NCBI GenBank assembly: GCA_947650365.1
Contig: CANTAL010000137.1
Coordinates: 434,001 to 498,000 of the forward strand
DNA from: Chamaelirium japonicum
Lineage: Eukaryota > Streptophyta > Magnoliopsida > Liliales > Melanthiaceae
DNA length: 64,000 bases
Direction of reading: 5' to 3'
The notes under the pieces are model-generated. The model saw only the letters and a list, made by a program, of their open reading frames with translations. It was not told the DNA's origin and did no database searches. Below are positions 1-64,000 of this stretch, piece by piece. Both the position numbers and the translations under genes were made by a program. Positions within the stretch are counted from its first letter, which is position 1; the number at the start of each line of letters is the position of its first letter.

Positions 1-253
1 GAATGAATTAGAATAGATCATACGAATTAATTAGAATGGATCTTACGAATGAATTAGAATGGATCGTACGAATGAATTAGAATGGATCGTACGAATGAAT
101 TAGAATGGATCGTGCGAATGAATTAGAATGGATCGTATGAATGAATAAGAATGGATCGTACGAATGAATTAGAATGGATCGTGCGAATGAATTAGCATGA
201 ATCGTACGAATGTATTAGAATGGATCGTACGAATGAATTAGAATGAATCATAC
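1..253 (+). repeat. Satellite block 1, F orientation
   Basis: About eleven 23 bp units cut by the window start. It ends at a switch centred on GTAC-like ATAC (GAATCATACGATCC). The last units (GCATGAATCG, then TATTAG) match those before the switches near 4,890, 48,580 and 58,697, so this is the tail of the same conserved module. Confidence 0.93.
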
Positions 254-1101
254 GATCCATTCTAATTCAATCGTCCGATCCATTCTAATTCTTTTGCATG
301 AATGTATCCATTCTAATTCATTCGTACAATCCATTCTATTTCATTCGTACGATCCATTCTTACTCATTCGTATGATCCATTCTAATTCATTCATATGATC
401 CATTCTAATTCATTCGTACGGTCCATTCTAATTCATTCGTACGATCCATTGTAATTCATTCGCACGATCCATTCTAATTCATTCATACGATCCATTCGAA
501 TTCATTCATACGATCCATTCTAATTCATTCCTACAATTCATTCTAATTCATTCGCCCGATCCATTCTAATTCATTCATACGATCCATTCTATTCGAATGG
601 ATCATGCGATCCATTCGAATTCATTCACACGATCCATTCTAATTCATTCATACGATCCATTCAAATTCATTCATACAATGCATTCTAATTCTTTCGCACG
701 ATCCATTCTAATTCATTCATACGATCCATTCTAATTCATTCGTACGATCCATTCTAATTCACTCATACGATACATTCTAATACATTCATACGATCCTTTC
801 TAATTCATTTGCACGAATATATCCATTCTAATTCATTCGTACGATCCATTCTAATTCCTTCGTACGATCCATTCTAATTCATTTGTACGATCTATTCTAA
901 TTCATTCGTACGATCCATTCTAATTCATTCGTACGATCCATTCTAATTCATTCGTACGATCCATTCGTACTATCCGTTCTAATTCACTCATACGATCCAT
1001 TCTAATTCATTCATACGTTCCATTCTAATTCATTTGCACAAAGGTATCCATTCTAATTCATTCGTACGATCCATTCTAATTCATTCACACGAATGTATCC
1101 A
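254..1101 (-). repeat. Satellite block 2, R orientation
   Basis: R units with 28 bp forms near 296, 814, 1,040 and 1,090. It holds a short hairpin element at 581-620. It ends in CATTCGTACGAATG, a 14 bp perfect palindrome that makes the switch to F. Confidence 0.93.
581..620 (-). repeat. Short hairpin element M4, R context
   Basis: GAATGGATC at 595 and GATCCATTC at 608 form a 9 bp hairpin with loop ATGC inside an R block. Reads CTATTCGAATGG on the left and CATTCGAATTC on the right. Confidence 0.88.
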
Positions 1102-3214
1102 TTCGTACGAATGAATTAGAATAGATTGTACGAATGAATTAGAATGGATCATACGAAGGAATTAGAATGGATCGTACGAAGGAATTAGAATGGATCGTAC
1201 GAATGAATTAGAATGGATCGTACGAATGAATTAGAATGGATCGTACGAAGGAATTAGAATGGATCGTGCGAATGAATTAGAATGGATCGTATGAATGAAT
1301 TAGAATGGATCGTACGAATGAACTAGAATGGATACATTCGTGCGAATGAATTAGAATGGATCGTACGAATGAACTAGAATGGATCGTACGAATGAATTAG
1401 AATGGATCGTACGAATGGATTAGAATGGATCATACGAATGAATTAGAATGGATCGTGCGAATGAATTAGAATGGATCGAACGAATGAATTAGAATGGATA
1501 TATTCGAGCGAATGAATTAGAATAGATCGTAGGAATGAATTAGAATGGATCATACGAATGAATTAGAATGGATCGTACGAACGAATTAGAATGGATTGTA
1601 TGAACGAATTAGAATGGATCATATGAACGAATTAGAATGGATCGTACGAATGAATTAGAATGGATACATTTGAGCGAATGAATTAGAATGGATCGTACGA
1701 ATGAATTAGAATAGATCATAGGAATGAATTAGAATGGATCGTGCAAATAAATTAGAATGGACACATTCGTGCGAATGAATTAGAATGGATTGTGCGAATG
1801 AATTAGAATGGATCGTACGAATGAATTAGAATGGATATATTTGAACGAATAAATTAGAATGGATCATACGAATGAATTAGAATGGATCGTACGAATGAAT
1901 TAGAATTGATAGTACGAATAAATTAGAATGGATCGTACGAATGAATTAGAATGGATACATTCGTGCGAATGAATTAGAATGGATCATACGAATGAGTAAG
2001 AATGGATCGTACGAAGGATCTTACGAATGAGTAAGAATGGATCGTACGAATGAATTAGAATGGATCTTACGAATAAATCAGAATGGATCGTACGAATAAA
2101 TTAGAATGGATCGTATGAATGGTTTAGAATGGATACATTCGTGCGAATGAATTAGAATGGATCGGATGAATGACTTAGAATGGATCGTACGAATGAATTA
2201 GAATGGATCAAATGAATGAATTAGAATGGTTACATTCATGCGGATGAATTAGAATGGATCGTACGAATAGATCATATGAATGGATTAGAATAGATACATT
2301 CGTGCGAATGAATTAGAATGGATCATACGAATGAGTAAGAATGGATCGTACGAATGAAATAGAATGGATTGTACGAATAAATTAGAATGGATCATGCGAA
2401 TGAATTTGAATGGATCGTACGAATGAATTAGAATGGATCGTGCTAATGAATTAGAATTGATCGTACGAATGAAATAGAATGGATTGTACGAATGATTTAG
2501 AATGGACCGTACGAATGAATTAGAATGGGTCGTACGAATGATTTAGAATGGATACATTCGTGCGAATGAATTAGAATGGATCATACGAATGAGTAAGAAT
2601 GGATCGTACGAATGAAATAGAATGGATTGTACGAATGAATTAGAATGGATTCGTACAAATGAATTAGAATGGATACATTCGTGCGAATGAATTAGAATGG
2701 ATCATACCAATGAGTAAGAATGGATCGTACGAATGAAATAGAATGGATTGTGCGAATGAATTAGAATGGATCGTATGAATGAATTAGAATGGATCGTGTG
2801 AAAGAATTAGAATGGATTGTATGAATGAATTAGAATAGATCGTATGAATGAATTAGAATGGATCGTACGAATGAATTAGAATGGATCGCACGAATGAATT
2901 AGAATGGATCGTATAAATGAATTAGAATGGATACATTCGTGCGAATGAATTAGAATGGATACATTCGTGCGAAAGAATTAGAATAGATCGTATGAATGAA
3001 TTAGAATGGATCCTATGAATGAATTAGAATGGATCGTGCGAATGAATTAGAATGGATCGTACGAATGAATTAGAATGGATCGTCCGAATGAATTAGAATT
3101 GATCGAACGAATGAATTACCATGGATCGTGCTAATGAATTAGAATGGAACGTACGAATGAATTAGAATGGATCGTGTGAAAGAATTAGAATGGATTTTAT
3201 GAATGAATTAGAAT
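1102..3214 (+). repeat. Satellite block 3, F orientation, about 2.1 kb
   Basis: F units with many 28 bp forms. The GAGTAAG then GAAATAG cassette occurs near 2,330, 2,590 and 2,715. A GGTTACATTC marker unit lies near 2,228. It ends at the GAATTCGTACGATCC switch shared with seven other places. Confidence 0.93.
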
Positions 3215-4210
3215 GAATTCGTACGATCCATTCGAATTCATTCGCACGATCCATTCTAATTCATTCATACGATCCATTCTAATTAATTCATACAATCCGT
3301 TCTAATTCTTTCACATGATCGATTCTAATTCATTCGTAGGATCCATTCTAATTCATTCGTACAATCTATTCTATTTCATTCGTACGATCCATTCTTACTC
3401 ATTCGTACGATCCATTCTAATTCATTCGTACGATCCATTCTAATTCATTCGTCCGATCCATTCTAATTCATTCGCACGAATTTATCCATTCTAATTCATT
3501 CGCACGAATGTATCCATTCTAATTCATTCGTACGATCCATTCTAATTCATTCGTACGATCCATTCTAATTCATTTGCACGAATGTATCCATTCTAGTTCA
3601 TTCGTACGATCCATTCTAATTCATTCATACAATCCATTCTAATTCATTCGCACGAATGTATCCATTCTAATTCATTCGTACGATCAGTTCTAATTCATTC
3701 ACAAAATCTATTCTAATTCATTCATACGATCCATTCTAATTCATTCACACGAATGTATCCATTCTAATTCATTCATACTATCCATTCTAATTCATTCGTA
3801 CGATCCATTCTAATTCACTCATACGATCCATTCTCATACATACATACGATCCATTCTAATTCATTTGCACGAATATATCCATCCTAATTCATTCGTACGA
3901 TCCATTCTAATTCCTTCGTACGATCCATTCTAATTCATTCGTACGATCTATTCTAATTCATTCGTATGATCCATTCTAATTCATTCGTACGATCCATTCT
4001 AATTCCTTCGTTCGATCCATTCTAATTCATTCGTACGATCCATTCTAATTCATTCATAAAATCCATTCTAATTCTTTCACACGATCCATTCTAATTCATT
4101 CGTACGATCCATTCTAAATCATTCATGCAATCCATTCTATTTCATTCGTACGATCCATTCTTACTCATTCGTACGATCCATTCTAATTCATTCACACGAT
4201 TGTATCCATT
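3215..4210 (-). repeat. Satellite block 4, R orientation
   Basis: Begins with the EcoRI-type switch (GAATTCGTACGATCC, then CATTCGAATTC). R forms of the cassette (CTATTTC, then CTTACTC) lie near 3,370 and 4,140. It ends in CATTCGTACGAATG. Confidence 0.93.
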
Positions 4211-4910: not shown

Positions 4911-7120
4911 CGTCCGATCCATTCTAATTCATTCACATGAATGTATCCATTCTAATTCATTCATACAATCCATTCTTTTTCATTCGTACGATCCATTCTT
5001 ACTCATTCGTATGATCCATTCTAATTCATTCACACGAATGTATCCATTCTAATTCATTCATACAATCCATTCTAATTCATTCCGTACAATCCATTCTAAT
5101 TCTTTCACACGATCCATTCTAATTCATTCGTACGTTCCCTTCTAATTCATTAGCACGATCCATGCTAATTCATTCATTCGATCCATTCTATTCGAATGGA
5201 TCATGCGATCCATTCGAATTCATTCACCCGATCCATTCTAATTCATTCATACGATCCATTCTAATTCATTCATACAATGCATTCTAATTCTTTCGCACGA
5301 TCCATTCTAATTCATTCATACGATCCATTCTAATTCGTTCGTACGATCCATTCTAATTAACTCATACGATCCATTCTAATACATTCATACGATCCATTCT
5401 AATTCATTTGCACGAATATATCTATTCTAATTCATTCATATGATCCATTCTAATTCCTTCGTACGATCCATTCTAATTCATTCGTTTGATTTATTCTAAT
5501 TCATTCGTACGATCCATTCTAATTCCTTCGTACGATCCATTCTAATTCATTCGTACGATCCATTCTAATTCATTCATACAATCCATTCTAATTCTTTCAC
5601 ACGATCCATTCTAATTCATTCGTACGATCTATTCTAATCCATTCGTGCAATCCATTCTATTTCATTCGTACGATCCATTCTTACTCATTCGTACGATCCA
5701 TTCTAATTCATTTGTACGATCCATTCTATTTCATTCATACGATCTATCCTAATTCATTCATACAATACATTCTAATTCTTTCACACGATCCATTCTAATT
5801 CATTCGTACGATCCATTCTAATTCATTCGCACAATCCATTCTATTTCATTCGTACGATCCATTCTTACTCATTGGTACGATCCATTCTAATTCATTCGCA
5901 CGAATGTATCCATTCAAATTCATTCGTACGAATCCATTCTAATTCATTCGTACAATCTATTCTATTTCATTCGTACGATCCATTCGTAATCATTCGTATG
6001 ATCCATTCTAATTCATTCGGATGAATGTATCCATTCTAATTTATTCGTACGATCCATTCTAATTCATTCGTTCGATCCATTCTAATTCATTCGTACGATC
6101 CATTCTAATTCATTCATCCGATCCATTCTAATTCATTCACACGAATGTATCCATTCTAATTCATTCGTATGATCCATTCTAATTCATTCGTAAGATCCAT
6201 TCTAATTCATTTATACGATCCATTCTAATTCATTCGTACGATCCATTCTAATTCATTCGCACGAATGTATCCATTCTAGTTCATTCGTACGATCCATTCT
6301 AATTCATTCGTACGATCCATTCTAATTCATTCACACGATCCATTCTAATTCATTCGTACGATCCATTCTAATTCATTCATACGATCCATTCTAATTCATT
6401 CGTACGATCCATTCTAATTCATTCGCACAAATATATCCATTCTAATACATTCGTACGATCCATTCTAATTCATTCGCACGATCCATTCTAATTTATTCGT
6501 ACGATCCATTCTAATTCTTTCACACAATCCATTCTAATTCATTCGTATGATCCATTCTAATTTATTTGCACGTTCCATTCTAATTCATTCGTAAGATCCA
6601 TTCTAATTCATTCATACGATCCATTCTAATTCATTCGTACGATCCATTCTAATTCATTCGCACAAATGTATCCATTCTAATTCATTCGTACGATCCATTC
6701 TAATTCATTCGCACAATCCATTCTAATTCATTCGTACGATCCATTCTAATTCATTCGTACGATCCATTCTAATTCATTCGTATGATCCATTCTAATTAAA
6801 TCGTATGATCCATTCTAATTCATTCGTACGATCCATTCTAATTCATTCATACAATCCATTCTAATTCATTCGCATGAATGTATCCATTCTAATTAATTCG
6901 TACGATCCATTCTAATTCATTCGTATGATCTATTCTTATTCATTCGCACGATCCAGTCTAATTGATTCACACGATCCATTCTAATTCATTCGCACGAATG
7001 TATCCATTCTAATTCATTCGTACGATCCATTCTAATTCATTAATATGATCCATTCTAATTCATTCATACGATCCATTCTAATTCATATGCACAAAGGTAT
7101 CCATTCTAATTCATTCGCAC
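4890..7120 (-). repeat. Satellite block 6, R orientation, about 2.2 kb
   Basis: R units with a hairpin element at 5,181-5,220 matching the one at 581-620. Near 7,085 it has the rare CATATGCACAAAGG unit. It ends in ATTCGCACGAAAGAATT, a switch type also seen at about 16,130. Confidence 0.93.
5181..5220 (-). repeat. Short hairpin element M4, R context, second copy
   Basis: Same sequence as 581-620, with the F piece at 5,194-5,206. The next 170 bp also match (CACCCG, ATGCATTC, CTTTCGCACG). Confidence 0.88.
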
Positions 7121-8069
7121 GAAAGAATTAAAATGGATTGTATGAAAGAATTAGAATGGATCGTGCGAATGAATTAGAATGGATCGTACGAAGGAATTAG
7201 AATGGATCGTACGAAGGAATTAGAATGGTTCGTACGAATGAGTAAAAATGGATCGTACGAATGAATTAGAATGGATCATACGAATGAATTAGAATGGATC
7301 GTACGAATTAATTAGAATGGATCGTACGAATGAATTAGAATGGATCGTACGAATGAATTAGAATGGATACATTCGTGCGAATGAATTAGAATGGATCGTA
7401 CGAATGAATTAGAATGGATCGTACGAATGAAATAGAATAGATACATTTGTGCGAATGAATTAGAATGGATCGTACGAATGAATTAGAATGGATCGTATGA
7501 ATGAATTAGAATGGATCGTACGAATGAATTAGAATGGATCGTGCGAATTAATTAGAATGGATCGTACGAATGAATTAGAATGGATCGTACGAATGAACTA
7601 GAATGGATACATTCGTGCGAATGAATTAGAATGGATCGTACGAATGAATTAGAATGGATCGTACGAATGAATTAGAATAGATCTTACGAATGAATTAGAA
7701 TGGATCGTACGAATGAATTAGAATGGATACATTCGTGCGAATGAATTAGAATGGATCGGACGAATGAATTAGAATGGATCGTACGAATTAATTAGAATGG
7801 ATCGTACGAATGAATTTGAATGGATCGTACGAATAAATTAGAATGGATACATTCGTCCGAATGAATTAGAATGGATCATACGAATGAGTAAGAATGGATC
7901 GTACGAATGAAATAGAATAGATTGTACGAATGAATTAGAAAGGATCCTACGAATGAATTAGAATGGATCGTGTGAAAGAATTAGAATGGATTGTATGAAT
8001 GAATTAGAATGGATCGTATGAATGAATTAGAATGGATCGTGTGAATGAATTCGAATGGATCGTACGAAT
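7121..8069 (+). repeat. Satellite block 7, F orientation
   Basis: 28 bp units start near 7,366, 7,440, 7,606, 7,726 and 7,846. The gaps of 74, 166, 120 and 120 bp equal 2, 6, 4 and 4 plain units plus one long unit. A cassette follows near 7,880. It ends in the GAATTCGAATGG switch (type B). Confidence 0.93.
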
Positions 8070-8307
8070 TCATTCTAATTCATTCATACAATCCATTCTA
8101 ATTCTTTCACACGATCTATTCTAATTCATTCGTAGGATCCATTCTGATTCATTCGTACAATCCATTCTTTTTCATTCATACGATCCATTCTTACTCATTC
8201 GTATGATCCATTCTAATTCATTCGCACGAATGTATCCATTCTAATTCATTCATACAATCTATTCTAATTCATTCCGTACGCTCCATTCTAATTCATTCGT
8301 ACGATCG
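8070..8307 (-). repeat. Satellite block 8, R orientation, short
   Basis: About ten R units. It ends in CGTACGATCGTACG, a palindrome centred on GATC, inside a longer perfect palindrome of about 28 bp. Confidence 0.92.
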
Positions 8308-8371
8308 TACGAATGAATTAGAATGGATAGTAAGAATTAAAATGGATTGTATGAACGAATTAGAATGAATT
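8308..8371 (+). repeat. Satellite block 9, F orientation, 64 bp
   Basis: The shortest block, under three units, between a GATC-centred switch and a type A EcoRI switch. One unit is shortened (GGATAGTAAGAATTAAAATGG). Confidence 0.9.
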
Positions 8372-8879
8372 CGTACGATCCATTCGAATTCATTCGCACG
8401 ATCCATTCTAATTCATTCATACGATCCATTCTAATTCATTCATACAATCCATTCTAATTCTTTCACACGATCCATTCTAATTCATTCGTAGGATCCATTC
8501 TAATTCATTCGTACAATCTATTCTAATACATTCGTACGATCCATTCTAATTCATTCGCATGAATGTAACCATTCTAATTCATTCATTTGATCCATTCTAA
8601 TTCATTCGTACGATCCATTCTAATTCATTCGTCCGATCCATTCTAATTCATTCGCACGAATGTATCCATTCTAATTCATTCGTACGATCCATTCTAATTC
8701 ATTCGTACGATCCATTCTAATTCATTCGTAAGATCCATTCTAATTCATTCGTACGATCCATTCTAATTCATTCATACGATCCATTCTAATTCATTCGCAC
8801 GATCCATTCTAATTCATTCGTACGATCAATTCTAATTCATTCGCACGAATGTATCCATTCTAATTCATTCGTACGTTCC
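8372..8879 (-). repeat. Satellite block 10, R orientation
   Basis: Starts with the type A switch. It ends in GTTCCTGAATTAGAATGG, the reverse complement of the switches at about 19,157 and 45,124. Confidence 0.92.
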
Positions 8880-9046
8880 TGAATTAGAATGGATCGTACG
8901 AATGAATTAGAATGGATACCTTTGTGCATATGAATTAGAATGGATCGTACGAATGAATTAGAATGGATCATATTAATGAATTAGAATGGATCGTACGAAT
9001 GAATTAGAATGGATACATTCGTGCGAATGAATTAGAATGGATCGTG
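8880..9046 (+). repeat. Satellite block 11, F orientation, short
   Basis: Seven units including the rare ACCTTTGTGCATATG and CATATTAATG units. It ends in CGTGCACG, centred on TGCA. Confidence 0.92.
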
Positions 9047-10033
9047 CACGAATGTATCCATTCTAATTCATTCGTACGATCCATTCTAATTCATTAATAT
9101 GATCCATTCTAATTCATTCGTACGATCCATTCTAATTCATATGCACAAAGGTATCCTTTCTAATCAATTCATAGGATCCATTCTAATCCATTCGTACGAT
9201 CCATTCTAATTCATTCGTACGATCCATTCTAATTCATTCGCTCGAATGTATCCATTCTAATCCATTCGTACGATCCATTCTAATTCATTCGCATGAATGT
9301 ACCCATTCTAATTCATTCATTTGATCCATTCTAATTCATTCGTACGATCCATTCTAATTCATTCGTCTGATCCATTCTAATTCATTCGCACGAATGTATC
9401 CATTCTAATTCATTCGTACGATCCATTCTAATTCTTTCGCACGATCCATTCTAATCCATTCGTACGATCCATTCTAATTCATTCGTACGATCCATTCTAA
9501 TTCATTCGCTCGAATGTATCCATTGTAATCCATTCGTACGATCCATTCTAATCCATTCGTACGATCCATTCTAATTCATTCGCATGAATATAACCATTCT
9601 AATTCATTCATACAATCCATTCTAATTCATTCATACGATCCATTCTAATTCATTCGTCCGATCCATTCTAATTCATTCGCACGAATGTATCCATTCTAAT
9701 TCATTCGCACGATCCATTCTAATTCATTCGTACGATCCATTCTAATTCATTCGTACGATCCATTCTAATTCATTCGTAGGATCCATTCTAATTCATTCGT
9801 ACAATCTATTCTATTTCATTCGTACGATCCATTCTTACTCATTCGTATGATCCATTCTAATTCATTCGGACGAATGTATCCATTCTAATTTATTCGTACG
9901 ATCCATTCTAATTCATTCGTATGATCCATTCTTACTCATTCGTACGATCCATTCTAATTCCTTCGTACGATCCATTCTAATTCATTCACACGATCCATTC
10001 TAATTCTTTCATACAATCCATTCTAATTCTTTC
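9047..10033 (-). repeat. Satellite block 12, R orientation
   Basis: R units rich in AATCCATTCG variants and GCTCGAATG long units. It ends with CTTTCGTGTGAATG and forms the first part of the conserved 620 bp module seen again near 40,195 and 59,213. Confidence 0.93.
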
Positions 10034-10400
10034 GTGTGAATGAATTAGAATGGATACCTTTGTGCATATGAATTAGAATGGATCGTACGAATGAATTAGA
10101 ATGGATCATATTAATGAATTTGAATGGATCGTACGAATGAATTAGAATGGATACATTCGTGCGAATGAATTAGAATGGATCGTGCGAATCAATTAGACTG
10201 GATCGTGCGAATGAATAAGAATAGATCATACGAATGAATTAGAATGGATCGTACGAATTAATTAGAATGGATACATTCGTGCGAATGAATTAGAATGGAT
10301 TGTATGAATGAATTAGAATGGAGCGTACGAATGAATTAGAATGGATCATACGAATTAATTAGAATGGATCGTACGAATGAATTAGAATGGATCGTACGAA
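9780..10400 (+). repeat. Switch-bearing module M2, copy 1
   Basis: An R half ending in CTTTCATACAATCC and CTTTCGTG, then an F half with ACCTTTGTGCATATG, CATATTAATG, GACTGG, GAATAAGAATAG and two long units. From ACCTTTG the long units follow at 94 and 214 bp in all three copies. Confidence 0.88.
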
Positions 10401-11374
10401 TGAATTAGAAAGGATCGTGCGAATGAATTAGAATAGATCGTACGAATGAATTAGAATGGATACATTTGTGCGAATGAATTAGAATGGATCGTATGAATGA
10501 ATTAGAATGGATCGTACGAATGAATTAGAATGGATCGTGCGAATGAATTAGAATGGATCGTACGAATGAATTAGAATGAATCGTGTGAAAGAATTAGAAT
10601 GGATCGTACGAATGAATTAGAATGGATCGTGCGAATGAATTAAAATAGATCGTACGAATGAATTAGAATGGATACATTTGTGCGAATTAATTAGAATGGA
10701 TCGTACGAATGAATTAGAATGGATCGTATGAATGAATTAGAATGGATCGTACGAATGAATTAGAATGGATCGTGCGAATGAATTAGAATGGATCGTACGA
10801 ATGAATTAGAATGGATCGTACGAATGAACTACAATGGATACATTAGTGTGAATGAATTAGAATGGATCGTACGAATGAATTACAATGGATCGTACGAATG
10901 AATTAGAATGGATCTTACGAATGAATTAGAATGGATCGTACGAATGAATTAGAATGTATCGTACGAATGAATTAGAAACGATACATTCGTGCGAATGAAT
11001 TAGAATGGATCGGACGAATGAATTAGAATGGATCGCACGAATGAATTAGAATGGATCGTACGAATGAATTAGAATAGATCGTACGAATAAATTAGAATGG
11101 ATACATTCGTCCGAATGAATTAGAATGGATCATACGAATGAGTAAGAATGGATCATACGAATGAAATAGAATAGATTTTACGAATGAATTAGAATGGATT
11201 CGTACGAATGAATTAGAATGGATACATTCGTGCGAATGAATTAGAATGGATCGTACCAATGAGTAAGAATGGATCGTACGAATGAAATAGAATGGATTGT
11301 ACGAATGAATTAGAATGGATACATTCATGCGAATGAATTAGAATGGATCGGACGATTGAATTAGATTGGATCGT
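10034..11374 (+). repeat. Satellite block 13, F orientation
   Basis: Begins with ACCTTTGTGCATATG. Long units recur at 120 bp steps near 10,151-10,271 and 11,101-11,221. Read on the minus strand, 11,092-11,328 is free of stops, but this is an effect of variant units and not a gene. Confidence 0.93.
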
Positions 11375-11815
11375 ACGATTCATTCTAATTCATTCGTACG
11401 ATCAATTCTAATACATTCGTACGATTCATGCTAATTCATTCGCACGATCCATTCTAATTCATTCGTACGATCCATTCTTATTCATTCATACGATCCATTC
11501 TAATTCATTCGCACAATCCATTCTAATTCATTCGTACAATCCATTCTAATTCATTCGTATGATCCATTCTAACTTATTCGGTGGATCCATTCTAATTTAT
11601 TCGTACGATCCATTCTAATTCATTCCCCCAATCCATTCTAATTTATTCGTATGATCCATTCTAATTCATTCGTACGATCTATTCGAATTCATTCGCACGA
11701 ATGTAAACATTCTAATTCATTCATACGATTCATTCTAATTCATTCGTATGAGCTATTCTAATTCATTAGTACGATCCATTCTAATTCATTCGTATGGTCC
11801 ATTGTAATTCATTCA
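11375..11815 (-). repeat. Satellite block 14, R orientation
   Basis: Starts at GTACGATTCATTC. Its run of markers (CATGCTAATTC, TTCGGTGGATCC, TTCCCCCAATCC, then AACATTC) repeats near 49,471-49,920 and 52,385-52,830. It ends in CATTCATGCGAATG. Confidence 0.92.
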
Positions 11816-11991
11816 TGCGAATGAATTAGAATGGATCGTACGAATGGATTAGAATGGATCGTATGAGTGAATTAGAATGGATACGAAGGAATTAGAATGG
11901 ATCGTACGAAGGAATTAGAATGGATCATACGAATGAAATAGAATGGATCGTACGAAGGAATTAGAATAGATCGTACGAAGGAATTAGAATG
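11816..11991 (+). repeat. Satellite block 15, F orientation, short
   Basis: About eight units, several with GGAATTAG in place of TGAATTAG. One unit (GGATACGAAGG) is shortened. It ends in GAATGCATTC, a 10 bp palindrome. Confidence 0.92.
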
Positions 11992-12465: not shown

Positions 12466-12789
12466 AATGAGTAAGAATGGATCGTACGAATGAAATAGAA
12501 TGGATTGTACGAATGATTTAGAATGGATACATTCGTGCGAATGAATTAGAATGGATTGTGCGATTGAATTAGAATGGATCGTACGAATGAATTAGAATGG
12601 ATCGTGTGAAAGAATTAGAATGGATTGTATGAATGAATTAGAATAGATCGTATGAATGAATTAGAATGGATCGTATGAGTGAATTAGAATGGATACGAAG
12701 GAATTAGAATGGATCGTACGAAGGAATTAGAATGGATCATACAAATGAATTAGAATGGATCGTGCTAATGAATTAGAATTGATCGAACG
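12466..12789 (+). repeat. Satellite block 17, F orientation, short
   Basis: Starts inside a GAGTAAG unit, then GAAATAG. It repeats the shortened GGATACGAAGG unit of block 15. It ends at GAACGAATTCATTC, a partial type B switch. Confidence 0.92.
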
Positions 12790-51591: not shown

Positions 51592-52033
51592 CGTACGATC
51601 CATTCGAATTCTTTCGCACGATCCATTCTAATTCATTCATACGGTCCATTCTAATTCATTCATACAATCCATTCTAATTCTTTCACACGATCCATTCTAA
51701 TTCATTCGTAGGATCCATTCTAATTCATTCGTACAATCTATTCTATTTCATTCGTACGATCCATTCTTACTCATTCGTATGATCTATTCTAATTCATTCG
51801 GACGAATGTATCCATTCTAATTTATTCGTACGATCCATTCTAATTCATTCGTATGATCCATTCTAATTCATTCGTACGATCCATTCTTACTCATTCGTAT
51901 GATCCATTCTAATTCATTCGTACGATCCATGCTAATTCATTCGTACGATCCATTCTAATTCATTCGCACGATCCATTCTAATTCATTCGTACGATCCATT
52001 CTAATTCATTCATACGATCCATTCTAATTCATT
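51592..52033 (-). repeat. Satellite block 54, R orientation
   Basis: Contains the junction at about 51,912 between the two 2,914 bp copies. Confidence 0.93.
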
Positions 52034-52384
52034 TTAGAATGGATACATTCGTGCGAATGAATTAGAATGGATCGTACGAATGAATTAGAATGGATCGTAC
52101 GAATGAATTAGAATGGATCTTACGAATGAATTAGAATGGATCGTACGAATGAATTAGAATGGATCGTACGAATGAATTAGAATGGATCGTACGAATGAAT
52201 TAGAATGGATCAAATGAATGAATTAGAATGGATCGTACGAATGAATTAGAATGGATCGTACGAATGATTTAGAATGGATCGTACGAATGAATTAGAATGG
52301 ATCGTACGAATGAACTAGAATGGATACATTCGTCGTGCGAATGAATTAGAATGGATCGTACGAATGAATTAGAATGGATCGTAT
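52034..52384 (+). repeat. Satellite block 55, F orientation
   Basis: Copy of block 51, identical by eye, including the TTCGTCGTGCG unit at 52,330. Confidence 0.93.
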
Positions 52385-53309
52385 GATTCATTCTAATTCA
52401 TTCGTACGATCCATTCTAATACATTCGTACGATTCATGCTAATTCATTCGCACGATCCATTCTAATTCATTCATACGATCCATTCTTATTCATTCATACA
52501 ATCCATTCTAATTCATTCGCACAATCCATTCTAATTCATTCGTACAATCCATTCTAATTCATTCGTATGATCTATTCTAACTCATTCGGTGGATCCATTC
52601 TAATTCATTCGTACGATCCATTCTAATTCATTCCCACGATCCATTCAAATTTATTCGTACGATCTATTCTAATTCATTCGTATGATCTATTCTAATTCAT
52701 TCGCACGAATGTAACCATTCTAATTCATTCATACGATTTATTCTAATTTATTCGTATGAGCTATTCTAATTCATTCGTACGATCCATTCTAATTCATTCG
52801 TACGATCCATTGTAATTCATTCATACAATCCATTTAGATTCATTCGCACAAATGTATCCATTAAAATTCATTCGTACGATCCAGTCTAATTCATTTGTAC
52901 GATCCATTCTAATTCATTCGCATGAATATATCCATTCTAAGTCTTTCGTACGATGCATTCTAATTCATTCGTACGATCCATTCTAATTCATTCATTTGAT
53001 CCTTTCTAATTCATTCGTACGATCCATTCAAATTCATTCGTCCGATCCATTCTAATTCATTCGCACTAATGTATCCATTCTAATTCATTCGTACGATCCA
53101 TTCTAATTCATTCGTACGATCCATTCTAATTCATTCGTAAGATCCATTCTAATTCATTCGTACGATCCATTCTAATTCATTCGTACGATCCATTCTAATT
53201 CATTTGCACGAATGTATCCATTCTAGTTCATTCGTACGATCCATTCTAATTCATTCGTACGATCCATTCTAATTCATTCCGTACGATCCATTCTAATTCA
53301 TTCGTACGA
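52385..53309 (-). repeat. Satellite block 56, R orientation
   Basis: Copy of block 52. One difference seen: C at 52,514 against G at 49,600. Confidence 0.93.
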
Positions 53310-54505
53310 TCGTACGAATGAATTAGAATGAATTAGAATGGATCGTACGAATGAATTAGAATGGATCTTACGAATGAATTAGAATGGATCGTACGAATGA
53401 ATTAGAATGGATCGTACGAATGAATTAGAATGGATACATTCGTGCGAATGAATTAGAATGGATCGGACGAATGAATTAGAATGGATCGTACGAATGAATT
53501 AAAATGGATCAAATGAATTCATTAGAATGGTTACATTCATGCGAATGAATTAGAATGGATCGTACGAATGGATTAGAATGGATCGTACGAATGGATTAGA
53601 ATGGATACATTCGAGCGAATGAATTAGAATGGATCGTACGAATGAATTAGAATGGATCGTATGAATGGATTAGAATGGATCCTACGAATGGATTAGAATG
53701 GATACCTTTGTGCATATGAATTAGAATGGATCGTATGAATGAATTAGAATGGATCGTAGAATGGATCGTACGAATGAATTAGAATGAATTAGAATGGATC
53801 GTACGAATGAATAAGAATAGATCATAGGAATGAATTAGAATGGATCGTGCAAATGAATTAGAATGGATACATTCGTACGAATGAATTAGAATGGATCGTA
53901 CGAATGAATTAGAATGGATCGTACGAATGTATTAGAATGGATCGTACGAATGAATTAGAATGGATCATACGAATGAATTAGAATGGATCATACGAATGAG
54001 TAAGAATGGATCGTACGAATGAAATAGAATGGATTGTACAAATGAATTAGAATGGATCGTACGAATGAATTAGAACGGATCGTGTGAAAGAATTAGAATG
54101 GATTGTATGAATGAATTAGAATGGATCATATGAATGAATTAGAATGGATCGTGCGAATGAATTCGAATGGATTGTACGAATGAATTAGAATGGATCGTAC
54201 GAATGAATTAGAATGGATACATTCGTGCGAATGAATTAGAATGGATACATTCGTGCGAAAGAATTAGAATAGATCGTATGAATGAATTAGAATGGATCCT
54301 ATGAATGAACTAGAATGGATCGTGCGAATGAATTAGAATGGATTGTGCGAATGAATTAGTATGGATCGTGCAAATGAATTAGAATTGATCGAACGAATGA
54401 ATTAGCCTGGATCGTGCTAATGAATTAGAATGGAACGTACGAATGAATTAGAATGGATTGTGTGAAAGAATTAGAATAGATTGTATGAATGAATTAGAAT
54501 GAATT
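53310..54505 (+). repeat. Satellite block 57, F orientation
   Basis: Copy of block 53. One difference seen: C at 53,394 against G at 50,480. Confidence 0.93.
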
Positions 54506-54931
54506 CGTACGATCCATTCGAATTCTTTCGCACGATCCATTCTAATTCATTCATACGGTCCATTCTAATTCATTCATACAATCCATTCTAATTCTTTCAC
54601 ACGATCCATTCTAATTCATTCGTAGGATCCATTCTAATTCATTCGTACAATCTATTCTATTTCATTCGTACGATCCATTCTTACTCATTCGTATGATCTA
54701 TTCTAATTCATTCGGACGAATGTATCCATTCTAATTTATTCGTACGATCCATTCTAATTCATTCGTATGATCCATTCTAATTCATTCGTACGATCCATTC
54801 TTACTCATTCGTATGATCCATTCTAATTCATTCGTACGATCCATTCTAATTCATTCGTACGATCCATTCTAATTCATTCGCACAATCTATTCTAATTCAT
54901 TCGTACGATCCATTCTAATTCATTCGTACGA
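54506..54931 (-). repeat. Satellite block 58, R orientation
   Basis: Contains the right end of the 2,914 bp duplication near 54,826. It ends in CGTACGATCGTACG. Confidence 0.93.
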
Positions 54932-55299
54932 TCGTACGAATAAATTAGAATGGATCGTACGGAATGAATTAGAATGGATTGTATGGATGAATTAGAATGG
55001 ATACATTCGTGCGAATGAATTAGAATGGATCATACGAATGAGTAAGAATGGATCGTACGAATGAAATAGAATGGATTGTACGAATGAATTAGAATGGATC
55101 GTACAAATGAATTAGAATGGATCGTACGAATGAATTAGAATGGATCATACGAATGAGTAAGAATGGATCGTACAAATGAAATGGAATGGATTGTACGAAT
55201 GAATTAGAATGGATCGTACGAATGAAATAGAATGGATTGTACGAATGAATTAGAATGGATACATTCGTGCGAATGAATTAGAATGGATCATACGAATGA

Positions 55300-55987
55300 A
55301 TTAGAATGGATCTTACGAATGAATTAGAATGGATCGTACGAATGAATTAGAATGGATCGTACAAATGAATTTGAATGGATACATTCGTGCGAATGAATTA
55401 GAATGGATTGGACGAATGAATTAGAATGGATCGTACGAATGAATTAGAATGGATCGTACGAATAAATTAGAATGGATACATTCGTCCGAATGAATTAGAA
55501 TGGATCATACGAATGAGTAAGAATGGATCGTACGAATGAAATATAATAGATTGTACGAATGAATTAGAATGGATTCATACGAATGAATTAGAATGGATAC
55601 ATTTGTGCGAATGAATTAGAATGGATCGTATCAATGAGTAAGAATGGATCGTACGAATGAAATAGAATGGATTGTGCGAATGAATTAGAATGGATCGTAC
55701 GAATGAATTAGAATGGATCGTACGAATGAATTAGAATGGATCCTATGAATGAATTAGAATGGATCGTGCGAATGAATTAGAATGGATCGTACGAATGAAT
55801 TAGAATGGATCGTGCTAATGAATTAGAATTGATCTAACGAATGAATTAGAATGGATACATTCGTGCGAATGAATTAGAATGGATCGGACGAAAGAGTTAG
55901 AATGGATCGTACGAATGAGTAAGAATGGATCGTACGAATGAATTAGAATGGATCGTACGAATGAATTAGAATGGATCGTACGAATGA
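55300..55987 (+). repeat. 688 bp tandem duplication, copy 1
   Basis: TCTTACG at 55,311 and GATCTAACG at 55,831 each recur 688 bp later. Includes GATTGGACG, cassette and GATTCATACG units in the same order. Confidence 0.88.
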
Positions 55988-56675
55988 ATTAGAATGGATC
56001 TTACGAATGAATTAGAATGGATCGTACGAATGAATTAGAATGGATCGTACAAATGAATTAGAATGGATACACTCGTGCGAATGAATTAGAATGGATTGGA
56101 CGAATGAATTAGAATGGATCGTACGAATGAATTAGAATGGATCGTACGAATAAATTAGAATGGATACATTCGTCCGAATGAATTAGAATGGATCATACGA
56201 ATGAGTAAGAATGGATCGTACGAATGAAATAGAATAGATTGTACGAATGAATTAGAATGGATTCATACGAATGAATTAGAATGGATACATTCGTGCGAAT
56301 GAATTAGAATGGATCGTACCAATGTGTAAGAATGGATCGTACGAATGAAATAGAATGGATTGTGCGAATGAATTACAATGGATCGTACGAATGAATTAGA
56401 ATGGATCGTACGAATGAATTAGAATGGATCCTATGAATGAATTAGAATGGATCGTGCAAATGAATTAGAATGGATCGTACGAATGAATTAGAATGGATCG
56501 TGCTAATGAATTAGAATTGATCTAACGAATGAATTAGAATGGATACATTCGTGCGAATGAATTAGAATGGATCGGACGAATGAGTTAGAATGGATCGTAC
56601 GAATGAGTAAGAATGGATCGTACGAATGAATTAGAATGGATCGTACGAATGAATTAGAATGGATCGTACGAAGGA
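55988..56675 (+). repeat. 688 bp tandem duplication, copy 2
   Basis: Same unit order as copy 1 with scattered substitutions (for example GTGTAAG against GAGTAAG near 56,325). Ends where a GAAGGAATTAG unit replaces the expected one. Confidence 0.87.
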
Positions 56676-57349
56676 ATTAGAATGGATCGTGCTAATGAAT
56701 TAGAATGGAATAGAATAGATTGTACGAATGAATTAGAATGGATTCGTATGAATGAATTAGAATGGATACATTCGTGCGAATGAATTAGAATGGATTGTAC
56801 CAATGAGTAAGAATGGATCGTACGAATGAAATAGAATGGCTTGTGCGAATGAATTAGAATGGATCGTACGAATGAATTAGAACGGATCGTGTGAAAGAAT
56901 TAGAATGGATTGTATGAATGAATTAGAATAGATCGTATGAATGAATTAGAATGGATCGTATGAGTGAATTAATATGGATACGAAGGAATTAGAATGGATC
57001 GTACGAAGGAATTAGAATGGATCATACAAATGAAATAGAATGGATCGTATGAATGAATTAGAATGGATCGTACGAAGGAATTAGAATGGATCGTACGAAG
57101 GATATAGAATGGATCGTACGAATGAATTAGAATGGATATATTCGTGCAAATGAATTAGAATGGATCGTATGAATGAATTAGAATGGATCGTATGAGTGAA
57201 TTTGAACGGATCGTACGAATGAAATAGAATGAATTAGAATGAATTAGAATTGATCGTACAAATGAAATAGAATGGATTGTACGAATGATTTAGAATGGAT
57301 CGTACGAATGAATTAGAATGGATCGTACGAATGATTTAGAATGGATACA

Positions 57350-58715
57350 TTCATGCGAATGAATTAGAATGGATCATACGAATGAGTAAGAATGGATCGT
57401 ACGAATGAAATAGAATGGATTGTACGAATGAATTAGAATGGATCGTGCGAATGAATTTGAATGGATCGTACGAATGAATTAGAATGGATCGTACGAATGA
57501 ATTAGAATGGATCGTACGAATAAATTAGAATGGATACATTCGTGCGAATGAATTAGAATGAATACATTCGTGCGAAAGAATTAGAATAGATCGTATGAAT
57601 GAATTAGAATGGATCCTATGAATGAATTAGATTGGATCGTGCGAATGAATTAGAATGGATCGTACGAATGAATTAGAATGGATCGTACAATTGAATTAGA
57701 ATGGATCGTACGAATGAATTAGAATGGATCGTACGAATGAATTAGAATAGATCATACGAATGAATTAGAATGGATCGTACGAATGAAATAGAATGGATTG
57801 TACGAATGAATTAGAATGGATCGTACGACTGAATTAGAATGGATCGTGTGAAAGAATTAGAATGGATTGTATGAATGAATTAGAATGGATCATATGAATG
57901 AATTAGAATGGATCGTGCGAATGAATTAGAGTGGATCGTACGAATGAATTAGAATGGATCATACGAATGAATTAGAATGGATCATATGAATGAGTAAGAA
58001 TGGATCGTACGAATGAAATAGAATGGATTCTACGAATGAATTAGAATGGATACATTCGTGCGAATGAATTAGAATGGATCGTACGAATGAATTAGAATGG
58101 ATCGTACGAATGAATTAGAATGCATCGTACGAAAGAATTAGAAACGATATATTCGTGCGAATGAATTAGAATGGATCGTATGCATGAATTAGACTGGATC
58201 GTACGAATAAATTTGAATGGATACATTTGTGCGAATGAATCTAAATGGATTGTATGAATGAATTACAATGGATCGTACGAATGAATTAGAATGGATCGTA
58301 CGAATGAATTAGAATAGCTCATACGAATGAATTAGAATGAGTCGTATGAATGAATTAGAATGGTTACATTCGTGTGAATAAATTAGAATAGATCGTACGA
58401 ATGAATTAGAATGGATCGTACGAATAAATTAGAATGGATCGTGGGAATGAATTAGAATGGATCGTACGAATGAATTAGAATGGATCCACCGAATGAGTTA
58501 GAATGGATCATACGAATGAATTAGAATGGATTGTACGAATGAATTAGAATGGATTGTGCGAATGATTTAGAATGGATCGTATGAATGAATAAGAATGGAT
58601 CGTACGAATGAATTAGAATGGATCGTGCGAATGAATTAGCATGAATCGTACGAATGTGTTAGAATGGATCGTACGAATAAATTAGAATGAATCGTACGAT
58701 CCATTCTAATTCATT
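57350..58715 (+). repeat. Switch-bearing module M1, copy 3
   Basis: Offset from copy 2 is 10,117 bp at GCATCGTACGAAAG and 10,140 bp at ATCCTATG further left, so one unit was gained or lost. Ends in the same GAATCGTACGATCC switch. Confidence 0.88.
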
Positions 58716-59450
58716 CGTACGATCCATTCTAATTCATTCGCATGAATGTATCCATTCTAGTTCATTCATACGATCCATTCTAGTTCATTCGTACGATCCA
58801 TTCTAATTCATTCGTACGATCCATTCTAATTCATTCGTATGATCCATTCTAATTAATTCGTATGATCCATTCTAATTCATTCGTACGATCTATTCTAATT
58901 CATTCATACAATCCATTCTAATTCATTCGCACAAATGTATCCATTCTAATTAATTCGTACGATCCATTCTAATTCATTCGTATGATCCATTCTTATTCAT
59001 TCGCACGAACCAGTCTAATGGATTCGCACGATCCATTCTAATTCATTCGCACGAATGTATCCATTCTAATTCATTCGTACGATCCATTCTAATTCATTAA
59101 TATGATCCATTCTAATTCATTCGCACGATCCATTCTAATTCATTCGTACGATCCATTCTAATTCATTCGTACGATCCATTCTAATTCATTCGCACGATCC
59201 ATTCTAATTCATTCGTACAATCTATTCTATTTCATTCGTACGATCCATTTTTACTCATTCGTATGATCCATTCTAATTCATTCGCATGAATGTATCCATT
59301 CTAATTTATTCGTACGATCCATTCGAATTCATTCGTACGATCCATTCTTACTCATTCGTACGATCCATTCTAATTCCTTCGTACGATCCATTCTAATTCA
59401 TTCGCACAATCCATTCTAATTCTTTCATACAATCCATTCTAATTCTTTCG
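58697..59450 (-). repeat. Satellite block 60, R orientation
   Basis: Its middle (58,920-59,110) resembles 37,735-37,900 in marker order. Its end is the left half of the third copy of the 620 bp module. Confidence 0.92.
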
Positions 59451-60841: not shown

Positions 60842-61589
60842 ATCGTATGAATGAAATAGAATGGATCGTGCGAATGAATTAGAATGGATTGTATGAATGA
60901 ATTAGAATAGATTGTACGAATGAATTACAATGGATCGTACGAATGAATTAGAATGGATCGTAGGAAGGAATTAGAATGGATCGTACGAATGAATTAGAAT
61001 GGATTGTATGAATGAATTAGAATGGATCGTACGAATGAATTAGAATGGATCGTGCGAATGAATTAGAATGGATCATACGAATGAGTAAGAATGGATCGTA
61101 CGAATGAAATAGAATGGATTGTGCGAATGAATTAGAATGGATCGTACGAATGAATTAGAATGGATCGTGTGAAGGAATTAGAATGGATTGTATGAATGAA
61201 TTAGAATAGATCGTATGAATGAATTAGAATGGATCGTACGAATGAATTAGAATGGATCGTACGAATGAATTAGAATGGATCGTACGAATGAATTAGAATG
61301 GATACATTCTTGCGAATGAATTAGAATGGATACATTCATGAGAAAGAATTAGAATAGATCATATGCATGAATTAGAATGGATCCTATGAATGAATTAGAA
61401 TGGATCGTGTGAATGAATTAGAATGGATCATACAAATGAATTAGAATGGATCATGCTAATGAATTAGAATTGATCGAACAAATGAATTAGCATGGATCGT
61501 GCTAATGAATTAGAATGGAACGTACGAATGAATTAGAATGGATCGTGTGAAAGAATTAGAATGGATTGTATGAATGAATTAGAATGAAT

Positions 61590-61875
61590 TCGTACGATCC
61601 ATTCGAATTCATTCGCACGATCCATTCTAATTCATTCATACGATCCATTCTAATTCATTCATATAATCCATTCTAATTCTTTCACACGATCCATTCTAAT
61701 TCATTCGTAGGATCCTTTCTAATTCATTCGTACAATCTATTCTATTTCATTCGTACGATCCATTCTTACTCATTCGAATGATCCATTCTAATTCATTCGG
61801 GCGATCCATTCTAATTCATTCGTACGATCCATTCTAATTCATTCGCACAAATGTATCCATTCTAATTCATTCGTA
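61590..61875 (-). repeat. Satellite block 62, R orientation
   Basis: Short right flank of a type A switch, ending at TTCGTACGAAGG as block 36 does. Confidence 0.92.
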
Positions 61876-62282
61876 CGAAGGAATTAGAATGGATCGTACG
61901 AATGAATTAGAATGGATCGTACGAATGAATTAGAATGGGTCTTACGAATGAATTAGAATGGATCGTACGAATGAATTAGAATGGATCGTACGAATGAATT
62001 AGAATGGATATATTCGTGCAAATGAATTAGAATGGATCGTATGAATGTATTAGAATGGATCATATGAGTGAATTAGAATCGATCATACGAATGAAATAGA
62101 ATGGATCGTATGAATGAATTAGAATGGTTACATTCGTGAAAATGAATTAGAATAGATCGTACGAATGAATTAGAATGGATCGTACGAATAAATTAGAATG
62201 GATCGTGTGAATGAATTAGAATGGATCGTACGAATGAATTAGAATAGATCCACCGAATGGGTTAGAATGGATCATACGAATG
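61876..62282 (+). repeat. Satellite block 63, F orientation
   Basis: Distant copy of block 37, including the GGTTACATTC unit and the GAATGATCC switch. Confidence 0.92.
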
Positions 62283-62724
62283 ATCCATTCTAATTCATTC
62301 ATACGATCCATTCTAATTCATTTGCAAGAATATATCCATTCTAATTCATTCGTACGATCCCTTCTAATTCCTTCGTACGATCCATTCTAATTCCTTTGTA
62401 CGATCCATTCTAATTCCTTCGTACGATCCATTCTATTTCATTCGTATGATCCATTCTAATTCCTTCGTACGATCCATTCTAATTCCTTCGTATCCATTCT
62501 AATTCACTCATACGATCCATTCTAATTCATTCATACGATCTATTCTAATTCATTCATACAATCCATTCTAATTCTTTCACACGATCCATTCTAATTCATT
62601 CGTACGATCCATTCTAATTCATTCGCACAATCCATTCTATTTCATTCGTACGATCCATTCTTACTCATTGGTACGATCCATTCTAATTCATTCGCACGAA
62701 TGTATCCATTCTAATTCATTCGTA
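62283..62724 (-). repeat. Satellite block 64, R orientation
   Basis: Distant copy of block 38 with the same shortened CTTCGTATCC unit at 62,486. Confidence 0.93.
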
Positions 62725-64000
62725 CGAATGAATTAGAATGGATCGTACGAATGAATTAGAATGGATCGTGCGAATGAATTAGATTGGATCGTACGAATGA
62801 AGTAGAATGGATCGTACGAATGAACTAGAATGGATACATTCGTGCAAATGAATTAGAATGGATCGTACGAATGAATTAGAATGGATCATACGAATGAATT
62901 AGAATGGATCTTACGAATGAATTAGAATAGATCATACGAATAAATTAGAATGGATCGTATGAATGGTTTAGAATGGATACATTCGTGCGAATGAATTAGA
63001 ATGGATCGAACGAATTAATTAGAATGGATCGTACGAATGAATTAGAATGGATCAATTGAATGAATTAGAATGGTTACATTCATGCAAATGAATTAAAATG
63101 GATCGTACGAATCGATTAGAATTGATCGTACGAATGGATTAGACTGGATACATTTGTGCGAATGAATTAGAATGGATCATACGAATGAGTAAGAATGGAT
63201 CGTACGAATGAAATAGAATAGATTGTACGAATGAATTAGAATGAATCGTGCGAATGAATTTGAATGGATCGTACGAATGAATTAAAATGGATCGTGCTAA
63301 TGAATTAGAATTGATCGTACGAATGAAATAGAATGGATTGTACGAATGATTTAGAATGGATCGTACGAATGAATTTGAATGGATCTTACGAATGATTTAG
63401 TATGGATACATTCGTGCGAATGAATTAGAATGGATCATACGAATGAGTAAGAATGGATCGTACGAATGAAATAGAATGGATTGTACGAATGAATTAGAAT
63501 GGATTCGTACGAATGAATTAGAATTGATACATTCGTGCGAATGAATTAGAATGGATCGTACCAATGAGTAAGAATGGATCGTACGAATGAAATAGAATGG
63601 ATTGTGCGAATGAATTAGAATGGATCGTACGAATGAATTAGAATGGATCGTGTAAAAGAATTAGAATGGATTGTATGAATGAATTAGAATAGATCTTATG
63701 AATGAATTAGAATGGATCGTACGAATTAATTAGAATGGATCGTACGAATGAATTAGAATGGATTGTACGAATGAATTAGAATGTATACATTCGTGCAAAT
63801 GAATTAGAATGAATACATTCATGCAAAAGAATTAGAATAGATCGTATGAATGAATTAGAATGGATCCTATGAATGAATTAGAATAGATCGTGCGAATGAA
63901 TTACAATGGATCGTACGAATGAATTAGAATGGATCGTGCTAATGTATTAGAATTGATCGAACGAATGAATTTGCATGAATGAATTAGAATGAATTCCTAC
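62725..64000 (+). repeat. Satellite block 65, F orientation, cut by window end
   Basis: Copy of block 39 without its internal duplication. The last bases (GAATTCCTAC) look like the start of a type A switch reached after loss of about four units. Confidence 0.92.

What the first reader, a model, noticed from the sequence alone, without database searches (positions are those of the whole stretch)
1..64000. A 23 bp satellite that changes orientation about 64 times in 64 kb
Seen directly: 65 alternating blocks, with about 53% F and 47% R. Most satellites keep one orientation for long runs; here the median block is only several hundred bases. Repeated inversion or fold-back synthesis, followed by spread of the switch points, is inferred. 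Many inverted arms in close pairs could form cruciforms or double-stranded RNA if transcribed.
Basis: partly seen in the sequence, partly recalled or inferred. Interest (0 to 1): 0.75.

Follow-up and report, generated by a model that had tools for sequence, protein, structure and literature searches.

The report
Orientation-scrambled holocentromere satellite (Chio1/Chio2)
This stretch is part of the known centromere satellite of a lily relative whose chromosomes carry many centromere units; its repeat flips direction every few hundred bases, and most of the flip points look like copies of a limited set of older joins, not independent new flips.

Summary
The window is wholly a 23-bp satellite with a 28-bp variant, in 72-75 alternating blocks (53% F, median about 0.5 kb). 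What could be tested fits the published Chio1/Chio2 centromere satellite of the holocentric plant Chionographis japonica, whose mixed, "frequently alternating" orientation is already in print.

The addition is how the switches behave. In 264 kb of contiguous array, 275 usable junctions fall into 26 repeated families (237 junctions) plus 38 singletons; artificial junctions hardly cluster. One 31-bp junction occurs exactly 13,935 times in the genome, half on each strand. In three stretches on two other contigs, picked because they hold a known junction, 28 of 39 switches match C149 junctions. A second assembled copy (50 kb, aligned segments 99.5% identical) shares 53 switches; the 10 that differ lie in or beside stretches present in one copy only, and I found no inversion. 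Arms flanking switches are no more mirror-like than random arms, which speaks against recent fold-backs. Families favour the unit's 8-bp palindrome TCGTACGA.

Best reading: rare founder joins, multiplied passively by duplication and reoriented by exchange between opposite blocks. Alternation already known; clonal switch points are the addition. CENH3 binding, raw reads and function were not tested.

The parts
1..64000 (.). Chio1/Chio2-type satellite array: 23-bp units with 28-bp variants in alternating orientation; no insert detected inside the window
   Evidence: 200-bp stretches with under 80% match were found only outside the window
6595..58856 (+). Stretch colinear with contig C8:34601-84600 (anchored segments 99.47% identical over 41,044 bp); 53 switches shared
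48988..52019 (+). First copy of a direct tandem duplication with 2,914-bp spacing, carrying four switches (99.77% identical to the second copy)
51902..54933 (+). Second copy of the same duplication; C8 is 2,914 bp shorter here and has four switches fewer
8681..10389 (+). Segment with three switches absent from C8, where one switch stands at the join (C8:36691) that matches no junction family of the 264 kb
19662..20899 (+). Segment present once here but in two direct copies on C8, inside a C8 insertion that holds two further switches
21815..21838 (+). 24-bp F island inside an R block (double switch, junction B); exact 45-bp form found 2,889 times genome-wide
39022..39045 (+). Second copy of the 24-bp F island (junction B)
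43235..43258 (+). Third copy of the 24-bp F island (junction B)
3208..3238 (+). Exact copy of junction A (switch family 1, F to R); 13,935 exact copies genome-wide
8048..8078 (-). Exact copy of junction A
8360..8390 (+). Exact copy of junction A
24542..24572 (+). Exact copy of junction A
26352..26382 (+). Exact copy of junction A
28303..28333 (-). Exact copy of junction A
33734..33764 (+). Exact copy of junction A
39755..39785 (-). Exact copy of junction A
46747..46777 (-). Exact copy of junction A
51580..51610 (+). Exact copy of junction A (first copy of the tandem duplication)
54494..54524 (+). Exact copy of junction A (second copy of the tandem duplication)
61579..61609 (+). Exact copy of junction A
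31647..31701 (-). Pair of 28-bp (Chio2-type) monomers in R orientation
62676..62730 (-). Pair of 28-bp (Chio2-type) monomers in R orientation

Best explanation
The window is an inner part of an array of the Chio1 (23 bp) / Chio2 (28 bp) centromere satellite of Chionographis japonica. Orientation switches arose rarely as single joining events, often where F and R share the unit's self-complementary 8-mer TCGTACGA. They were then multiplied passively as cargo of segmental duplications of about 0.2 to 3 kb. Cassettes holding several switches were also copied or flipped in opposite orientation, probably by homologous exchange between opposite blocks, which needs no new switch; over time this brings orientation near 50:50. 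Shown: clustering of junctions, high exact copy number of two junctions on both strands, sharing with sampled stretches of two other contigs, and one duplication that added four switches at once. Inferred: the joining mechanism at the palindrome, and the exchange that reorients cassettes.
For: Identity: 23-bp unit plus a 28-bp form differing by 5 bp and one base, as published (PMC10264360); TCGTACGAA, reverse complement of the published TTCGTACGA; assembly of 1.519 Gb against 1.526 Gb published; contig C8 of 81,106,678 bp against a published scaffold N50 of 81.11 Mb. Junctions: 236 with clean arms form 48 clusters at the chosen threshold, against 229 for pseudo-junctions of the same phases; at a looser and a stricter threshold 39 against 159 and 68 against 235. 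Exact copies: A 6,996 + / 6,939 -, B 1,452 / 1,437, reversed-pattern control 0. Other stretches: 11 of 14, 8 of 10 (both C1), 9 of 15 (C118) and 6 of 6 (far end of C149) switches match a C149 junction, no pseudo-junction does. Two copies: 53 switches shared; the 7 C149-only and 3 C8-only lie in or at the edge of stretches present in one copy only. Palindrome: 14 of 64 families have their axis exactly there, against 1/23 expected (binomial p 5e-7); microhomology averages 3.0 bp against 1.0 for random joins. Near-identical copies of at least 200 bp: 2,127 direct, 2,056 inverted; at least 1,000 bp: 38 direct, 1 inverted. Copies of at least 500 bp carry switches at the array average, 1.26 against 1.27 per kb.
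Against: At the level of 24 exact bases, 80 of 111 distinct junction cores are single, and 38 of 64 clusters are singletons, so new joins do arise; three singletons tested have 3, 47 and 1 exact copies genome-wide. The C8 join at 36691 matches no family (best score 147 of 200) and has hardly any microhomology. The C1 and C118 stretches were picked because they hold junction B or a junction; without families 6 and 7 the two C1 stretches give 13 of 18. The 64 families may not be independent, which would weaken the palindrome test. Of the 25 longest copies listed, 15 lie within one region, C149:386-407 kb. Sorted by identity instead of length, copies show no clear trend from direct to mixed (direct share 0.50, 0.51, 0.53, 0.47, 0.55). 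Ends of inverted copies of at least 500 bp are mildly enriched at switches that the partner lacks (12.0% against 6.9%), so some inverted copies did make new joins. About 11 kb of the C149 stretch lies outside anchored segments, so a small inversion there is not excluded.
Confidence: 0.72

Rival explanations
1. Frequent independent fold-back synthesis or small inversions keep making new switches at random places.
For: A tail of singleton junctions exists. One family of 7 copies (family 11) has arms averaging 93% mirror identity, at the 96.9th percentile of random arms, and one singleton reaches the 98th.
Against: Mirror identity over all 236 arm pairs averages 0.857 against 0.851 for random arms; 4 of 236 reach 0.95, as do 1.4% of random pairs. 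Junctions are clustered. No inversion was found between the two near-identical copies.
Confidence: 0.14
2. The switches are assembly or library artefacts (mis-joins or fold-back chimeric reads).
For: Satellite arrays are hard to assemble; raw reads were not available here.
Against: Fold-back chimeras would give near-perfect mirrored arms, which are not in excess; one exact junction recurs 13,935 times; C8 and C149 share 53 switches; blocks of several hundred bases are short compared with HiFi reads (read length recalled); the mixture is published for a HiFi assembly, though this is probably the same assembly.
Confidence: 0.03
3. Switch points are kept by selection because they do something, for example as hairpin loops or protein sites in centromeric chromatin, as considered for conserved inversion sites in Tribolium madens.
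For: A few junction types are very common; published work links dyad symmetry with centromeres (PMC10264360, PMC13081366; passages).
Against: Switch density inside near-identical copies equals the array average, as passive carriage predicts. The palindrome is among the most variable parts of the unit, mostly by CpG-type transitions, and is intact in 967 of about 2,689 monomers.
Confidence: 0.1

Closest known systems
Chio1/Chio2 satellite of Chionographis japonica (Kuo et al. 2023, PMC10264360; Kuo et al. 2025, PMC12722358)
   Same: 23- and 28-bp monomers with a 5-bp and 1-base difference, shared 9-mer, palindromic elements, mixture of forward and reverse arrays in centromere units, matching assembly size and scaffold N50
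   Different: In the passages and sections that I read, the papers describe the mixture but not individual switch junctions, their families or copy numbers
Tribolium madens TmSat1/TmSat2 macro-dyad symmetries (PMC13081366, passages read)
   Same: Satellite arrays change orientation, and the inversion sites are of few types and highly conserved (2,044 INV_1a and 3,486 INV_1b sequences)
   Different: There predominantly two subarrays of several kb per array and three named site types; here blocks of about 0.5 kb and dozens of junction families, of which those counted have 1 to 13,935 exact copies
Chama satellite of Chamaelirium luteum (PMC12722358, passages read)
   Same: Sister genus; shares TTCGTACGA with Chio
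   Different: 60-bp unit, consistently oriented over hundreds of kilobases in one large centromere per chromosome

Membership tests
Chio1/Chio2 satellite of Chionographis japonica | 23-bp dominant monomer | tested here: met
Chio1/Chio2 satellite of Chionographis japonica | Less abundant 28-bp variant; [quoted passage not shown]
   GGAT-CGTAC against GGAT-ACATT-CGTGC; about 367 of 2,689 monomers; description
Chio1/Chio2 satellite of Chionographis japonica | Contains the 9-mer TTCGTACGA | tested here: met
   Its reverse complement TCGTACGAA lies across the unit boundary (unit; description)
Chio1/Chio2 satellite of Chionographis japonica | Genome assembly matches the published one (1,526 Mb primary; scaffold N50 81.11 Mb) | tested here: met
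   1,518.7 Mb in 3,253 contigs; C8 is 81,106,678 bp; published values. Match by size only
Chio1/Chio2 satellite of Chionographis japonica | Several centromere units per chromosome, about 10 Mb apart on average, with both orientations | tested here: inconclusive
   Junction B on C1 clusters near 1.4-3.3, 10.4-10.7, 17.2-18.3 and 27.4-28.2 Mb on both strands, as expected, but only the first 100 of 2,889 places were listed
Chio1/Chio2 satellite of Chionographis japonica | Letter-for-letter identity with the published consensus | not testable with these tools
   The consensus is in a figure that is not held
Chio1/Chio2 satellite of Chionographis japonica | CENH3 ChIP enrichment at this locus | not testable with these tools
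   No ChIP data on hand
Macro-dyad satellite arrays as in Tribolium madens | Recurrent, conserved inversion sites | tested here: met
   26 repeated families hold 237 of 275 junctions
Macro-dyad satellite arrays as in Tribolium madens | Predominantly two long opposing subarrays per array | tested here: not met
   71-74 switches in 64 kb

The most novel reading that the evidence does not exclude
Orientation switches in this satellite are clonal markers: a limited set of founder joins, many seeded at the palindrome TCGTACGA, that multiply as cargo and were carried between centromere units on different chromosomes. Because holocentric chromosomes may tolerate the dicentric or broken products of exchange between inverted arrays, orientation would be free to drift to 50:50 here, whereas the macro-monocentric sister Chamaelirium keeps one orientation. 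Tribolium, thought to be monocentric (recalled), speaks against holocentry being necessary.
Probability: 0.2. Interest if true: 0.7.

Novelty: already known. Interest (0 to 1): 0.42.

Why it matters
How centromere units came to be distributed along the chromosomes of Chionographis is stated to be unknown (PMC12722358, section 12). Switch junctions are discrete, countable characters that can be traced like alleles: shared rare junctions between units would show which unit seeded which. The two-copy comparison also separates making a switch from multiplying one (a single duplication with 2,914-bp spacing added four at once), so a scrambled array need not imply frequent inversion. This offers a passive explanation to test against functional readings of conserved inversion sites in other satellites.

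Tried and rejected
A search of the own genome with a four-unit consensus gave nothing; the tool warns that it skips common words. Exact junction patterns worked instead. The mirror-arm test for fold-back was negative, though old fold-backs could have lost the signal. Four-junction orders seemed strongly shared in reversed order (53 pairs against a shuffle maximum of 22), but 30 of these pairs come from an alternating run of families 3 and 5, so I rely only on three-junction (71 against 41) and five-junction orders (8 against 6). The agreement of orientation at 11,376 of 11,376 anchors is built in, because those anchors are same-strand matches, and is not used as evidence; instead I looked at opposite-strand anchors. 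Before clustering, 58 of 335 switches of the 264 kb were dropped because they fall in low-match stretches, and two more at the ends. The first 100 Chio2 places listed on C1 are all forward; I set this aside because the forward density there is like that of the C149 array, so the list probably shows forward places first. In one search the 'implied Mb' for pattern D is meaningless because its count in the sample was zero; D, the consensus join, occurs 1,095 times elsewhere, so family make-up differs between units. Phase labels '21.5' are an alias of the two-length model and were replaced by a direct fit. Of the paper searches I saw only the listings, apart from two listed papers that I opened (PMC13081366, PMC10264360).
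Full report
WHAT IS THERE. The whole 64-kb window is one satellite. Tandem Repeats Finder gives a 23-bp unit, GAATGAATTAGAATGGATCGTAC, and some 28-bp pairs. Two hidden Markov models give 75 blocks (23-bp unit only) or 72 blocks with 71 switches (23- and 28-bp units); the forward share is 53.4% and the median block 537 bp. The array goes on for at least 100 kb on each side with the same texture, interrupted by a few inserts. The first 10 kb of the 841-kb contig C149 do not fit the satellite model.

WHAT IT IS. The window lies at C149:434001-498000 of an assembly of 1,518,659,071 bases in 3,253 contigs. Kuo et al. 2023 (PMC10264360; abstract, passages and section 14 read) describe in holocentric Chionographis japonica the satellites Chio1 (23 bp) and Chio2 (28 bp), Chio1 lacking 5 bp and differing by one base. 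The units here are related in just this way: GGAT-CGTAC against GGAT-ACATT-CGTGC. Their primary assembly has 1,526,137,861 bp and the scaffolds an N50 of 81.11 Mb; contig C8 here has 81,106,678 bp. [quoted passage not shown] Kuo et al. 2025 (PMC12722358; abstract, passages and section 12 read) speak of "frequently alternating orientation" and of the 9-mer TTCGTACGA, which the unit here contains as its reverse complement. TTTAGGG repeats are present, the usual plant telomere repeat (recalled). The published consensus itself stands in a figure that I could not see, and no record name was available, so the identification rests on these agreements.

ARE THE SWITCHES INDEPENDENT? Mostly not. In 264 contiguous kb, 277 of 335 switches lie outside low-match stretches. 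Of 275 usable ones, clustering of 200-bp windows at a score of at least 170 of 200 gives 26 families of two or more (237 junctions) and 38 singletons. Among the 236 junctions with clean 100-bp arms there are 48 clusters, while 236 pseudo-junctions, built from random arms at the same phases, give 229; at scores of 160 and 180 the figures are 39 against 159 and 68 against 235. At the level of exact 24-base cores, 111 forms are distinct and 80 single, so families have diverged and a real tail of rare joins exists. Genome-wide, the exact 31-bp junction A occurs 6,996 times forward and 6,939 times reverse, and the exact 45-bp junction B 1,452 and 1,437 times, with no match to the reversed-pattern control. 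A consensus join at the palindrome occurs 1,095 times, though never in the 264 kb. Three window singletons occur exactly 3, 47 and 1 times. In four 10-kb stretches elsewhere, 11 of 14 (C1, 17.6 Mb), 8 of 10 (C1, 27.9 Mb), 6 of 6 (end of C149) and 9 of 15 (C118) switches match a C149 junction; no pseudo-junction does. These stretches were not random: the two on C1 hold junction B and that on C118 a junction. Without families 6 and 7 (junction B) the C1 stretches give 13 of 18.

A SECOND COPY OF THE LOCUS. C8:34601-84600 is colinear with C149:440595-492856 (window 6595-58856). Anchored segments are 99.47% identical over 41,044 bp. It is probably the other haplotype, but a recent duplicate is not excluded. 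Of 60 switches on C149 and 56 on C8, 53 are shared within 30 bp. The seven C149-only and three C8-only switches fall in or at the edge of stretches present in one copy only: four at a direct tandem duplication on C149 (copies 99.77% identical, spacing 2,914 bp, each with four switches; C8 is 2,914 bp shorter there); two in a 1.4-kb C8 insertion that partly repeats its neighbour and whose second switch matches an existing C149 junction (194 of 200); and three C149-only switches against one C8-only switch at a segment of about 1.7 kb missing from C8. That last join matches no family (best 147 of 200) and has hardly any microhomology: a switch can be made without inversion, by a deletion that joins opposite blocks. 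Which copy is ancestral was not determined. Unique opposite-strand matches near the expected place are few (94 of 1,353 within 2 kb), and 30 of the 32 that I listed lie in stretches that also align colinearly on the same strand, so they are local inverted repeats and not in-place inversions. About 11 kb of the C149 stretch has no anchored segment, so a small inversion there is not excluded. Ten of 19 length differences between segments are multiples of 23 bp.

HOW ORIENTATION GETS MIXED. Within the 264 kb, near-identical copies (at least 97%) of 200 bp or more are 2,127 direct and 2,056 inverted, but those of 1,000 bp or more are 38 direct and 1 inverted (15 of the 25 longest listed lie within C149:386-407 kb). 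Copies of 300 bp or more are direct in 75% of 16 pairs closer than 2 kb, falling to 45-50% beyond 50 kb; with shorter copies the trend is weaker, and sorting by identity instead of length or distance shows no clear trend. Copies of 500 bp or more carry switches at the array average, 1.26 against 1.27 per kb. Orders of three junction families recur reversed more often than in any of 500 shuffles (71 pairs, maximum 41), five-family orders likewise (8, maximum 6), for example 1-6-7-2 and 2-7-6-1 among four-family orders; the total for four-family orders is inflated by an alternating run. Ends of inverted copies coincide with a switch private to one copy somewhat more often than expected (12.0% against 6.9% for copies of at least 500 bp; direct copies 5.3% against 7.8%), so most but not all inverted copies appear to have been made without a new join, as far as alignment ends mark true ends. 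I infer homologous exchange or copying between opposite blocks, which flips cassettes but conserves junctions.

HOW SWITCHES ARE BORN. Of the 23 possible phases of an F/R join, only one lets both orientations share 8 bases, TCGTACGA; the next best share 4. By direct fit, 14 of 64 families have exactly this phase and 27 of 64 lie within one base (binomial p 5e-7 and 8e-9, assuming independent families). Microhomology averages 3.0 bp against 1.0 for random joins, and is at least 6 bp in 20% against 2%. Mirror identity of arms is 0.857 on average over 236 pairs against 0.851 for random F/R arms; family 11 averages at the 96.9th percentile and one singleton at the 98th. So recent fold-backs are rare; old ones cannot be excluded. 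The Chio2 insert makes CATTCG-TG-CGAATG, a perfect 6-bp inverted repeat; this looks like a templated change at the same palindrome (inference), and a Chio2 dimer folds better than a Chio1 dimer (z -3.3 against -1.2). The palindrome is more variable than the rest of the unit (11.8% non-consensus against 3.7% for positions 1-17), mostly by C to T and G to A changes at CpG and an A to G change, and is intact in 967 of about 2,689 monomers, close to the 945 expected if positions were independent. That does not suggest selection on it in this array.

COMPARISON. The nearest precedent for conserved inversion sites is Tribolium madens (PMC13081366, passages read), with 2,044 and 3,486 copies of two site types; its authors consider a structural role but also the way in which the repeats are distributed and exchanged. 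Here families are more numerous and the data fit passive carriage.

VERDICT. The alternation is real and already published. The added result is that most sampled switches are copies of older joins. I put 0.72 on that mechanism and 0.97 on the identification.

Noticed in passing
L009, about 2700-8650 (C149:416.7-422.65 kb), outside the window: A non-satellite insert of about 5.9 kb with a Retrotrans_gag frame (PF03732, E 1.4e-8) and similar reading frames near both ends, so probably an LTR-type retroelement inside the array; smaller inserts at C149 341.8, 376.0-376.6 and 574.2-575.0 kb.
   Followed up: partly
window 1-64000: GATC occurs 1,915 times in the window, about every 33 bp; the published Hi-C scaffolding used GATC as restriction site, so these arrays may be cut too finely to scaffold, which could explain unplaced contigs such as C149 (inference).
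   Followed up: no
window, 28-bp monomers: The 28-bp variant contains the perfect inverted repeat CATTCG-TG-CGAATG and may have arisen by templated insertion at the palindrome of the 23-bp unit.
   Followed up: partly
G000 C1:105.031-105.052 Mb: TTTAGGG blocks in both orientations inside a 137-Mb contig, in line with the interstitial telomere signals mentioned in PMC10264360, or a scaffold join.
   Followed up: no
L024 (C149:831256-841255): The end of C149 repeats a higher-order unit also found at C149:386-402 kb (98.7-99.5%), with switch families 3 and 5 alternating.
   Followed up: no
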